64,000 bases of DNA, taken from NCBI RefSeq assembly GCF_017916505.1, contig NZ_JAFMSZ010000004.1:186001-250000 (forward strand), written 5' to 3'. How positions within the stretch are numbered: position 1 is the stretch's first letter; each line of letters opens with the position of its first letter. The DNA comes from Naasia sp. SYSU D00057 (lineage in GTDB: Bacteria > Actinomycetota > Actinomycetes > Actinomycetales > Microbacteriaceae). Positions 13,090 through 41,214 of the stretch are shown here, in pieces. The notes beneath the pieces were generated by a model. The model ran no database searches and was not told the DNA's origin. It saw only the letters and a program-made list of their open reading frames with translations. Made by a program: the position numbers and the translations under genes.

Positions 13090-13115
13090 CCCGTCATTCT
13101 CGCTTGACTGGCGGT

Positions 13116-13487
13116 ATGACTGCCGCAGGCGAGAAGCCCGAGATCGAAGCCCCTGAGGGGCCCGCACCCGCCACCCTCGAGATCACCGACATCGTGGTGG
13201 GGGACGGCCCGGAGGCCGCCGCCCGCTCCACCGTCAACGTCCACTATCTGGGCGTCGAGTACGAGACCGGTGAGGAGTTCGACTCGTCCTGGAACCGCGG
13301 GCAGTCGATCAACTTCCCGCTCGCGAACCTGATCGCCGGCTGGCAGCAGGGCATCCCGGGCATGAAGGTGGGCGGCCGCCGCAAGCTGGTCGTCCCGCCG
13401 GCCCTCGCCTACGGTCCGGCCGGCGGCGGCCACCGCTTGAGCGGCAAGACCCTCATCTTCGTGATCGACCTCCTCGGCGTCTCCTGA
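13116..13487 (+). CDS. FKBP-type peptidyl-prolyl cis-trans isomerase
   Basis: A 123-residue single-domain FKBP. Motifs are VNVHYLGVEYETGEEFDSSW, then LIAGWQQGIPGMKVGGRRKLVVPPALAYG, and a terminal LIFVIDLLGVS. The active-site Tyr, Asp, Trp and Phe positions look intact, so isomerase activity is expected. No signal peptide is present, so it is cytoplasmic. A TTG four codons upstream is in frame, but the ATG at 13116 is the more usual start. A strong hairpin follows the stop. Confidence 0.92.
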   Translation: MTAAGEKPEIEAPEGPAPATLEITDIVVGDGPEAAARSTVNVHYLGVEYETGEEFDSSWNRGQSINFPLANLIAGWQQGIPGMKVGGRRKLVVPPALAYGPAGGGHRLSGKTLIFVIDLLGVS

Positions 13488-13509
13488 CCCCGACCCACCG
13501 CTGACCTGT

Positions 13510-13538
13510 AAGGCGCGCCCCCGCTCGGGGCGCGCCTT
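13510..13538 (+). terminator. Intrinsic terminator after the FKBP gene
   Basis: A perfect 12-bp stem, AAGGCGCGCCCC (13510-13521) with GGGGCGCGCCTT (13527-13538), and a 5-nt loop, 22 bp after the stop codon. Confidence 0.8.
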
Positions 13539-13556
13539 CCGCGTTCACGGGGGCGA

Positions 13557-13891
13557 GCTGGTGCACGCCCTTGCGGCGCGCCGCCGCGCCGTCAGCACAG
13601 GTCGGGCGCGCAGCGCCCGACTCGCCACCAGCAATCCCTACTCCGCCGTCGGACGGCGCGAAGCGCTCGTCCACTGGCGGCGGCTGACTTCCGCTGAAAC
13701 CGAGCGGTGGGCGGGGGCGTCCGCCGAGGCGAGTTTTGCGCGCCACGCTTGGCGCGCAACTGTCTGAGCAGCGGTGGACGCCCCCGCCCAGCGCGGTAGC
13801 GCCAAAGAAACGAGACAGGGCGCAAAAAAAGGAACTCGCCGTCCGGTGGCGGGGCGCTGCCTCCGACTCGATCCGGTCCGACGAGTTCCTT
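13557..13891. other. Nested inverted-repeat element in a 504-bp gene-free stretch
   Basis: Between the FKBP stop (13487) and the next gene (13992) lies a chain of inverted repeats. GCTGGTG/CACCAGC (13557-13563, 13626-13632) encloses GTCGGGCGC/GCGCCCGAC (13601-13609, 13613-13621). A 15-bp perfect pair (13708-13722, 13776-13790) encloses TTGCGCGCC/GGCGCGCAA (13736-13744, 13751-13759). AAGGAACTCG/CGAGTTCCTT (13829-13838, 13882-13891) closes a 43-nt loop. The open frames here on both strands are Arg/Pro-rich and judged spurious. It could be a non-autonomous mobile element or a structured RNA. Confidence 0.6.
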
Positions 13892-13979
13892 GTAGGTCTT
13901 CAGCATGCGCCCGAGGGAGCGGTGCGGCAAGTCGTCGCGACGCCCCAATCGGGCCCCGAAACGGGGTCGCGGCGGTGCG

Positions 13980-13985
13980 TAGGCT
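13980..13985 (+). promoter_or_regulatory. -10 box of leaderless aldo/keto reductase gene
   Basis: TAGGCT, 6 nt before the ATG at 13992. Confidence 0.6.
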
Positions 13986-13991
13986 GAACGC

Positions 13992-14825
13992 ATGACGGCT
14001 CCGGGCTCCTACTCCTTGAATGACGGCCTGTCGGTCCCGGTGATCGGGCTCGGCACATACGGCCTGCGGGGTGAGGAGGGGATCGCCGCGCTGGTGGCGG
14101 GCATCGAGGCGGGCTACCGGCTGCTGGACACCGCGTTCAACTACGGCAACGAGCGCGAGGTGGGGGAGGCGATCCGCCGTTCGGGGGTGCCGCGCGAGGA
14201 GTTCGTGGTGACGAGCAAGCTGCCGGGAGCCGCGCACGGCTTCGAGGAGACGCTGGCGTCGTTCGAGGAGTCGCGGGCGAGCCTGGGGCTCGACTACCTG
14301 GACCTGTACCTGATCCACTGGCCGCTCCCGAGGGTCGGCAAGTACGTGGACTCGTTCCGCGCGTTCGTGAAGCTGCGCGAGGACGGGCTGCTGCGCTCGG
14401 CCGGTGTGTCGAACTTCACGGAGGAGCACCTGCGGCGGGTGGCCGACGAGACGGGCGTCGTGCCGTCGGTGAACCAGGTGGAGTTGCACCCGTTCTTCCC
14501 GCAGGCCGATCTGCGGGCCGTGCACGAGCGGCTGGGTGTGCGCACGGAGAGCTGGAGTCCGCTCGGCAAGGGCTCGAACGTGTTCGAGTCTGAGCCGGTG
14601 CGGGCGGCTGCCGCGGCGCACGGGGTCACGCCGTCGCAGGTGGTGCTCCGCTGGCACATCCAGCTGGGGTCCATTCCGATCCCGAAGTCGGGGAACCGGG
14701 AGCGCCAGCGCGAGAACCTGGACGTGTTCGGGTTCGAGCTGACCGACGCCGAGGTGGCGGCGATCAGCGGGCTGGAGTCGGGGCGCCTGTGGGACGGCGA
14801 CCCGGACACCCACGAGGAGTTCTGA
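13992..14825 (+). CDS. Aldo/keto reductase (2,5-diketo-gluconate reductase-like)
   Basis: A 277-residue (alpha/beta)8-barrel NADPH-dependent reductase. The catalytic tetrad is complete: Asp and Tyr in RLLDTAFNYGNE, Lys in VVTSKLPG, His in YLDLYLIHWPLP. The C-terminal cofactor motif IPIPKSGNRERQREN is also present. It reduces carbonyl compounds in the cytoplasm; the natural substrate is not evident. This contrasts with the two His-lacking aldo/keto reductases at 35-37 kb. Confidence 0.9.
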   Translation: MTAPGSYSLNDGLSVPVIGLGTYGLRGEEGIAALVAGIEAGYRLLDTAFNYGNEREVGEAIRRSGVPREEFVVTSKLPGAAHGFEETLASFEESRASLGLDYLDLYLIHWPLPRVGKYVDSFRAFVKLREDGLLRSAGVSNFTEEHLRRVADETGVVPSVNQVELHPFFPQADLRAVHERLGVRTESWSPLGKGSNVFESEPVRAAAAAHGVTPSQVVLRWHIQLGSIPIPKSGNRERQRENLDVFGFELTDAEVAAISGLESGRLWDGDPDTHEEF

Positions 14826-41113: not shown

Positions 41114-41136
41114 GTTCCGGGCGCCCCGCTGCTGCG

Positions 41137-41206
41137 CCGAGTGCTGCCTCGAACACCGGATGCGGCCCGGGCAACGGGCGCATTCGGTGCCGCAGGGCGC
41201 ACTCGG
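41137..41206. repeat. Inverted quartet of CCGARTGC motifs
   Basis: CCGAGTGC (41137) and CCGGATGC (41156) face GCATTCGG (41180) and GCACTCGG (41199). Centres are spaced 19, 24 and 19 bp, a symmetric layout. It lies directly before the CCTGCTGAA array of locus C and uses a different motif. Confidence 0.55.
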
Positions 41207-41214
41207 CGACGAGC

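What the first reader, a model, noticed from the sequence alone, without database searches (positions are those of the whole stretch)
13488..13991. 504-bp gene-free stretch made of nested inverted repeats
After a clear terminator, four further inverted-repeat systems follow, including a 15-bp perfect pair (13708-13722, 13776-13790) with a 9-bp hairpin inside, a 9-bp hairpin at 13601-13621 inside a 7-bp pair, and a 10-bp pair closing a 43-nt loop at 13829-13891. The pattern is too regular for chance in a 500-bp piece. It resembles a MITE-like element or a large structured RNA. Frames on both strands (for example minus 13592-13993) are Arg/Pro-rich and would be annotated as hypothetical proteins by mistake.
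Basis: partly seen in the sequence, partly recalled or inferred. Interest (0 to 1): 0.6.

Follow-up and report, generated by a model that had tools for sequence, protein, structure and literature searches.

The report
Dispersed nested hairpin beside small RNA
This gene-free stretch contains one copy of a scattered, hairpin-shaped DNA repeat, whose stems differ between copies while a small unpaired core stays nearly the same even in a distant bacterial phylum, next to a separate candidate small-RNA gene.

Summary
The inverted repeats are real and far beyond chance, but the 504 bp are several things. (1) FKBP terminator, 13510-13538. (2) Two plainer hairpins, 13601-13621 and 13643-13684. (3) Element A, 13704-13794: a repeat with 8 copies found in this Naasia genome and 2-6 in three other Naasia species. 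It has a ~20-bp outer stem, an asymmetric core (minus strand CTCAGACAG / AACTCG) and an inner hairpin. Both stems differ between copies, nearly always with Watson-Crick pairing kept. The same core with unrelated stems occurs in three other Actinomycetota families and in Omnitrophota; no Rfam, plasmid, phage or viral-contig search found it. Copies lie mostly at gene 3' ends, often between convergent genes; at some of these sites relatives have plain terminators, at others nothing. (4) Candidate sRNA gene B, minus strand 13824-13895: promoter-like boxes, covarying terminator stem and invariant loop in 8 of 9 Naasia genomes. Wobble pairs are rare in A and stem changes can come in blocks, so its pairing is probably kept in DNA (template switching) rather than as classical RNA covariation. 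I read A as a new type of dispersed extragenic palindrome of gene ends. What spreads it is unknown; the REP transposase family (Y1) is absent from all 9 Naasia genomes searched.

The parts
13510..13538 (+). Intrinsic-terminator hairpin of the FKBP gene (12-bp stem AAGGCGCGCCCC/GGGGCGCGCCTT)
   Evidence: absent at the orthologous place in G004
13601..13621 (.). Plain 9-bp hairpin GTCGGGCGC-GCA-GCGCCCGAC; also present in G004, just after the FKBP stop
13643..13684 (.). Weaker nested hairpin
   Evidence: z -2.4
13704..13794 (-). Element A, whole: dispersed nested palindrome, core read on the minus strand
13772..13794 (-). Element A, outer stem P1, 5' arm in core orientation
13760..13768 (-). Element A core, 5' strand CTCAGACAG
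13736..13759 (-). Element A inner hairpin P2 (TTGCGCGCCA / TGGCGCGCAA)
13728..13735 (-). Element A core, 3' strand AACTCGCC
13704..13726 (-). Element A, outer stem P1, 3' arm in core orientation
13902..13930 (-). Promoter-like boxes of candidate sRNA B: TTGCCG (13930-13925), 17-nt spacer, CATGCT (13907-13902)
   Evidence: compared by eye with 7 relatives
13824..13895 (-). Candidate sRNA B (start near 13895 inferred from the -10-like box): long terminator stem AAGGAACTCGTCG/CGGCGAGTTCCTT around a loop containing CGGAGGCANCGCCCCG, then a T run
13104..13487 (+). FKBP-type peptidyl-prolyl isomerase gene
   Evidence: PF00254, E 1.2e-21
13992..14825 (+). Aldo/keto reductase gene
   Evidence: PF00248, E 9.7e-46

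Best explanation
The stretch is a composite gene-end region. Its odd part, element A (13704-13794), is one copy of a dispersed extragenic palindrome of an architecture I did not find described: outer stem P1 (about 20-25 bp), asymmetric unpaired core CTCRGACA(G)/AACTCG, inner hairpin P2. SHOWN: it is multicopy; its core is shared between two phyla while P1 and P2 are not; stems are almost purely Watson-Crick; copies lie mostly at gene 3' ends, more than half between convergent genes; at some occupied sites relatives carry plain terminators or hairpins, at others nothing. INFERRED: a palindromic unit (core, P2 and inner P1) is added at gene ends, in some cases in place of or inside the hairpin already there, so copies have their own outer arms. 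Replication template switching between arms then keeps them identical and sometimes inverts the core. The hairpin probably serves as, or backs up, a two-way transcription stop. The constant core is probably the recognition site of an unknown protein (a mobilising recombinase or a structure-binding factor). Beside it, B (minus strand) is a separate candidate small-RNA gene with its own promoter-like boxes and terminator.
For: Multicopy: 6 places in the own genome by BLAST, itself included, 8 by core pattern; in other Naasia 6 in G006, 2 in G004, 5 in G007 by covariance model, one more in G007, one diverged copy in G003. Cross-phylum: 11 matches in 8 of 384 Omnitrophota genomes, 0 reversed-pattern controls; 8 of the 11 pass the automatic stem filter. 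In other Actinomycetota families G839 (15 matches, 10 listed), G684 (4, of which 3 pass the filter), G875 (6) and others. Chance control: 16 viral-contig pattern hits, 0 pass the filter. Pairing on 16 aligned copies: 28 of 32 pairs change on both sides, score 0.595 against 0.164 shuffled and at most 0.155 slid. DNA-level stems: P2 561 Watson-Crick, 2 G.T, 4 A.C; P1 1376, 19, 55 (58 copies, three judged false included). A 7-bp block differs on both arms at one site, L216 v L241; core inverted between G839 (L204) and G684 (L253) at one site. P2 identical but P1 unrelated in two copies 300 bp apart in G060. Position: upstream gene sense in 46 of 54; convergent 32, tandem sense 14, tandem antisense 5, divergent 3. 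Relatives at occupied sites: nrdD, hairpin of 7-13 bp followed by T-rich sequence in six species; L205 site, 13-bp hairpin and L204 site, 16-bp hairpin in G609.
Against: No mobilising enzyme was found, and no clean empty site with near-identical flanks. At the L207 and L209 sites G609 has only 8-bp hairpins, which 26 of 170 shuffles reach; at four E. lenta-type sites (L191, L215, L216, L218) the element-free relatives measured (G800 at all four, G893 at L191, G673 at L216) have none over 7 bp; at guaA the element-free Naasia have inverted repeats of 6, 8, 11, 12 and 13 bp against 14-24 where A or its variant is present. So lodging in a pre-existing long hairpin is not the rule shown. In the window both neighbours already have terminators. 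After P1 there is no clear T run (mean 2.4 T per 10 nt in 44 Actinomycetota copies, 3.6 in 11 Omnitrophota). Core constancy is partly built into the pattern searches: among copies met by synteny several vary (CTCGGACAG, CTCAAACAG/AACTG, CTCGGCAG). P1 has more A.C than G.T on the core strand (50 v 15), which could mean constraint on a folded opposite strand. GC-rich stems may lower wobble counts by composition.
Confidence: 0.5

Rival explanations
1. Element A is a structured RNA motif (protein-binding or regulatory) in 3' untranslated regions: the unpaired core is conserved for binding and the stems covary under selection for RNA pairing.
For: Conserved loop with covarying stems is the classical RNA signature; tandem-gene copies are mostly sense to the upstream gene (14 v 5); copies follow tRNA genes in L003, L011 and L055 and what I read by eye as rnpB (L006, L127).
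Against: Few wobble pairs: 21 of 2163 stem positions in A against 8 of 199 in the neighbouring RNA candidate B (Fisher p 0.002 with 198, not independent); A.C exceeds G.T on the core strand; block change and inversion at single sites; some copies lie after a complete terminator (by eye); 0 Rfam matches at gathering score.
Confidence: 0.22
2. Element A is a REP-type element or MITE mobilised by a known transposase (RAYT/Y1 or a DDE enzyme recognising its ends).
For: Small, palindromic, extragenic, multicopy, irregular stem as in E. coli REPs; a RAYT-like open frame lies in the same 8-kb Omnitrophota locus L038 (recognised by eye).
Against: Y1_Tnp PF01797 in 0 of 9 Naasia genomes, while it rings in 5 of 14 control genomes; GTAG or CGTC near an end in only 6 and 12 of 55 copies, about chance by my estimate; the ends are the variable part.
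Confidence: 0.1
3. Ordinary gene-end hairpins that share a core by descent and occasional transfer: long hairpins evolve by template switching, and the core is a slowly changing loop; no dedicated mobility.
For: Sites are gene 3' ends, some with plain terminators in relatives; orthologous copies are inherited; template switching makes and repairs perfect stems (PMC8794818, PMC8604942).
Against: Same core in two phyla with unrelated stems, and several near-identical inner units at unlinked loci of one genome, need spreading or constraint beyond descent at a site.
Confidence: 0.18

Closest known systems
REP elements (GTAG/CGTC-tagged extragenic palindromes) with RAYT transposases
   Same: Short extragenic palindromes, multicopy, irregular stem important in some; proposed roles in termination and mRNA ends (PMC3733652, PMC8266576, passages read)
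   Different: No GTAG/CGTC tag, about 90 bp against 20-50, no Y1 transposase in Naasia, stems not conserved between copies, constant part is an internal asymmetric loop shared between phyla
Quasi-palindrome template-switch products
   Same: Arm homogenisation, block compensatory changes and spacer inversion are what template switching yields (PMC8794818 abstract and start of introduction; PMC8604942 passages)
   Different: Template switching alone explains neither the shared core nor the multiplication of copies
Bidirectional intrinsic terminators
   Same: Position after stop codons and between convergent genes; terminators at some of the same sites in relatives
   Different: No clear T run, sometimes follows a complete terminator, and contains the core and P2
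Small RNAs of Actinobacteria such as 6C (for part B; recalled)
   Same: Small, own promoter-like boxes, C-rich conserved loop
   Different: No Rfam family matches; seen only in Naasia among the 60 genomes (own genome included)

Membership tests
REP element | GTAG or CGTC tetranucleotide at one end | tested here: not met
   6 of 55 (GTAG) and 12 of 55 (CGTC) copies within about 10 nt of either end, any strand; about chance level by my estimate
REP element | RAYT / Y1 tyrosine transposase in the genome | tested here: not met
   PF01797 in 0 of 9 Naasia genomes; rings in 5 of 14 control genomes. Not tested in the other families or Omnitrophota
REP element | 20-50 nt palindrome, extragenic, multicopy | tested here: inconclusive
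   Extragenic and multicopy, but about 90 bp
MITE | Conserved terminal inverted repeats | tested here: not met
   Outer arms are the most variable part
MITE | Target-site duplication | tested here: inconclusive
   None seen by eye in flanks printed; no close empty site available
Rfam RNA family | Match at gathering score | tested here: not met
   0 matches for the window, for 5 and for 12 element loci; nothing relevant up to E 5 in 13400-14050
Structured cis-RNA (element A) | Wobble-tolerant covariation | tested here: not met
   G.T 21, A.C 59 of 2163 stem positions on the core strand
Small RNA gene (B) | Promoter, terminator and covarying fold | tested here: met
   -10-like CANNCT in 8 of 8, -35-like TTGNCN in 7 of 8 (TTGCAC in G001), by eye; T-rich end; 8 of 25 pairs changed on both sides, 14 cells against 4.7 shuffled. 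Promoter activity not tested
Small RNA gene (B) | Expression | not testable with these tools
   No RNA-seq available

The most novel reading that the evidence does not exclude
A new class of mobile DNA hairpin that multiplies by inserting its tip (core plus P2) into gene-end hairpins, using an unknown structure-specific recombinase that reads the asymmetric core CTCAGACAG/AACTCG; outer stems come from the target or are made on insertion, and are then kept perfect by template switching, giving Russian-doll palindromes shared between bacterial phyla.
Probability: 0.22. Interest if true: 0.85.

Novelty: new variant of a known kind. Interest (0 to 1): 0.6.

Why it matters
Dispersed palindromes are common, but families are usually recognised by conserved arms. 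This one escapes sequence searches because its arms differ between copies and only about 15 unpaired bases are nearly constant; searching for core plus pairing uncovered it in two phyla. If a protein reads the core, it defines a new mobile or gene-end system; if not, it is a natural case of stems being kept paired at DNA level while a loop is held fixed, which warns against taking compensatory changes as proof of RNA structure.

Tried and rejected
Rfam for the window, for element loci and at relaxed E: nothing relevant. RAYT as mobiliser: absent from 9 Naasia genomes. Viral, plasmid and phage origin: strict core 0 viral contigs, relaxed core 16 contigs, none passing the stem filter, E. lenta-type core 0; plasmids and phages were searched only with one 57-base E. 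lenta-type copy, no match. Pre-existing target palindromes: see the Against line; 9 of the 10 sites in the query could be compared (L217 not). Omnitrophota relatives of G060 were too diverged to compare sites. Chance hits L050 and L052, and L171, L188 and L214, were dropped before the 55-copy counts; the sums include the last three. E. lenta-type copies other than L218, and the tRNA-Leu copy of L055, do not pass the filter and are not in those counts. Orthologous copies are counted separately, so counts are not independent. Papers: searches found no description of this core (open PMC library only; terms in those calls). Read: passages of PMC3733652, PMC8266576 and PMC8604942; abstract and start of introduction of PMC8794818; others only as listings.

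Full report
SETTING. The window lies in G000:C16:186001-250000. Two same-genus genomes, G004 and G006, have contig lengths equal to Naasia sp. SYSU D00948 and Naasia aerilata, so I take this to be a Naasia genome; that Naasia is in Microbacteriaceae is recalled. The stretch lies between an FKBP isomerase (PF00254) and an aldo/keto reductase (PF00248), both on the plus strand; the three frames tested inside it match no Pfam family.

OBSERVATION. The quoted repeats were found where stated; the inner hairpin is 10 bp rather than 9. The fold is far beyond shuffles (z -6.0, 0 of 100), with element A the strongest piece (z -7.2, 0 of 200).

COMPOSITE NATURE. BLAST of the 504 bases against the own genome gave, besides itself, five other places, all within query bases 206-331, i.e. 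element A. In the 60 genomes (own included), bases about 206-331 and about 331-501 were matched at separate places, except in G004, where one match spans 215-500; weaker short matches to other parts also occur. The 331-501 part is a single-copy minus-strand unit, B. Comparison with G004 shows A and B at the same site there, the FKBP terminator 13510-13538 missing, and hairpin 13601-13621 kept.

ELEMENT A, ANATOMY. Aligned copies (14 Naasia, 2 Omnitrophota) show constant CAGNCAG-type and AACTCGCC strands, with P1 and P2 different between copies. For a named structure of 32 pairs, 28 have changes on both sides, 89.3% of cells pair, and the covariation score is 0.595 against 0.164 in shuffles and at most 0.155 when slid. 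The copies are related, so these numbers are not probabilities, and the copies were gathered by similarity or by the core.

ELEMENT A, DISTRIBUTION. Strict core over the genome collection (84,980 species by the tool's description): eight stretches, six in Naasia and two in Omnitrophota; the two Omnitrophota ones have long outer stems of unrelated sequence. A looser core in 384 Omnitrophota genomes: 11 matches in 8 genomes, 0 in reversed controls. Eight of the 11 pass the automatic stem filter, one (after a tRNA-Leu gene) does not pass but looks structured, two are chance. In 120 Microbacteriaceae: 2 genomes, both Naasia, the only two Naasia drawn. In 396 Actinomycetota: 33 genomes match a still looser pattern; besides G000, nine have palindromic P2 by inspection (G839, G684, G609 of f35; G875, G705, G673, G893, G587 of f42; G772 of f25), the rest look like chance; reversed controls gave single scattered hits. 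G875 is one contig of 3,632,260 bases, which I recall as the size of Eggerthella lenta DSM 2243; no call names it. In Naasia by covariance model: G000, G004, G006 and G007 have it; G001, G002, G003, G005 and G008 gave none, though synteny shows a diverged copy in G003.

ELEMENT A, STEMS. Over the 58 copies passing the filter (three judged false are included in these sums): P1 1376 Watson-Crick, 19 G.T, 55 A.C, 121 other, 24 gaps; P2 561, 2, 4, 25, 13. B has about 8 wobble cells of 199 (Fisher p 0.002, not independent, and GC-rich stems may lower wobble). On the core strand A.C exceeds G.T in P1 (50 v 15 in 55 copies; 40 v 15 without ten shared ones, p 0.001; not independent). Orthologous copies show a 7-bp block different on both arms (L216 v L241), unrelated P1 around nearly the same P2 (L209 v L252), and the core inverted at one site (L204 v L253). 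In Omnitrophota G060 two copies 300 bp apart share an identical P2 but have unrelated P1. These are expected marks of template switching (arm homogenisation, spacer inversion, multibase compensatory change: PMC8604942 passages; PMC8794818 abstract).

ELEMENT A, POSITION. For 55 copies (54 with an upstream gene found): upstream gene sense in 46; pairs convergent 32, tandem sense 14, tandem antisense 5, divergent 3, one without upstream gene (genes called by a simple frame test). RNA genes were not called, so of the eight 'antisense' ones L003 and L011 follow tRNA genes and L001 and L009 follow B. In convergent pairs orientation says nothing; in tandem pairs it leans to sense. Nine sites were compared with relatives. 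nrdD (PF13597): A in G839 and G684, a variant in G609, and plain hairpins of 7-13 bp followed by T-rich sequence in six other species. L205 site: 13-bp hairpin in G609, nothing in G684. L204 site: A in both G839 and G684 (inverted), a 16-bp hairpin in G609. L207 and L209 sites: 8-bp hairpins in G609, which 26 of 170 shuffles reach; in G684 the L207 site has a similar outer stem around a different insert (by eye) and the L209 site has A. pheS (by eye): A in G875, G893 and G673, operon or nothing in others, except a variant in G705. L191, L215, L216: A also in G673 (L191) and G893 (L216), a degenerate look-alike in G893 (L215), no hairpin over 7 bp in the element-free G800. At guaA (by eye), element-free Naasia have inverted repeats of 6-13 bp against 14-24 bp where A or its variant is present. 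Neighbours examined by Pfam are ordinary metabolic and housekeeping families, no transposase (8 proteins).

PART B. Eight Naasia genomes carry it; G005, 68% complete, shows no match. By eye it has CANNCT in 8 of 8 and TTGNCN in 7 of 8 (TTGCAC in G001), 17-18 nt apart (coordinates), a loop with many invariant columns, a T-rich end, and a stem in which 8 of 25 pairs change on both sides (14 cells against 4.7 +/- 1.9 shuffled, at most 3 when slid). The number of further pair types is not above shuffles (188 of 500). I read it as a small RNA of about 70-75 nt on the minus strand, divergent from the reductase gene. That its C-rich loop pairs with targets is inference.

MECHANISM AND LIMITS. Multiplicity of A within genomes and its presence in two phyla are shown; how it spreads is not. 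The constant core in unrelated stems argues for a reader protein. Whether outer arms come from earlier terminators (nrdD, L205, L204 and perhaps L207) or are made on insertion (guaA and the E. lenta-type sites, where relatives show no long palindrome) is open.

Noticed in passing
window 41133-41209: One copy of another palindromic repeat (about 70 bp, CACCGAGTGCGCCC...GGGCGCACTCGGTG, each arm itself a doubled unit), listed at many places in this genome and few in other Naasia.
   Followed up: partly
window 13824-13895 (minus strand): Candidate small RNA gene found in 8 of 9 Naasia genomes, without a match in Rfam.
   Followed up: yes
L222 (G684), site of L207: A different nested insert (TACGCGGGACTGCGCTGCGCGGAAGATCCCGCTTA) sits inside a similar outer stem; more than one such tip family may exist.
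   Followed up: no
L055:1475-1558 (Omnitrophota G063): Core plus P2 letter-for-letter equal to an Actinomycetota copy (G875:C1:2460328) over the 33 bases shown: recent transfer or MAG contamination.
   Followed up: no
L203 (G839): Two elements in opposite orientation, cores about 70 bp apart, between two genes.
   Followed up: no
L154 (G060): Another copy with a very short P2 (GCGGCTGTCGCCG) in the held stretch around the two G060 copies of L059.
   Followed up: no
L229, L255, L189: Longer P2 with further palindromic sequence inside, by eye three-level hairpins.
   Followed up: partly
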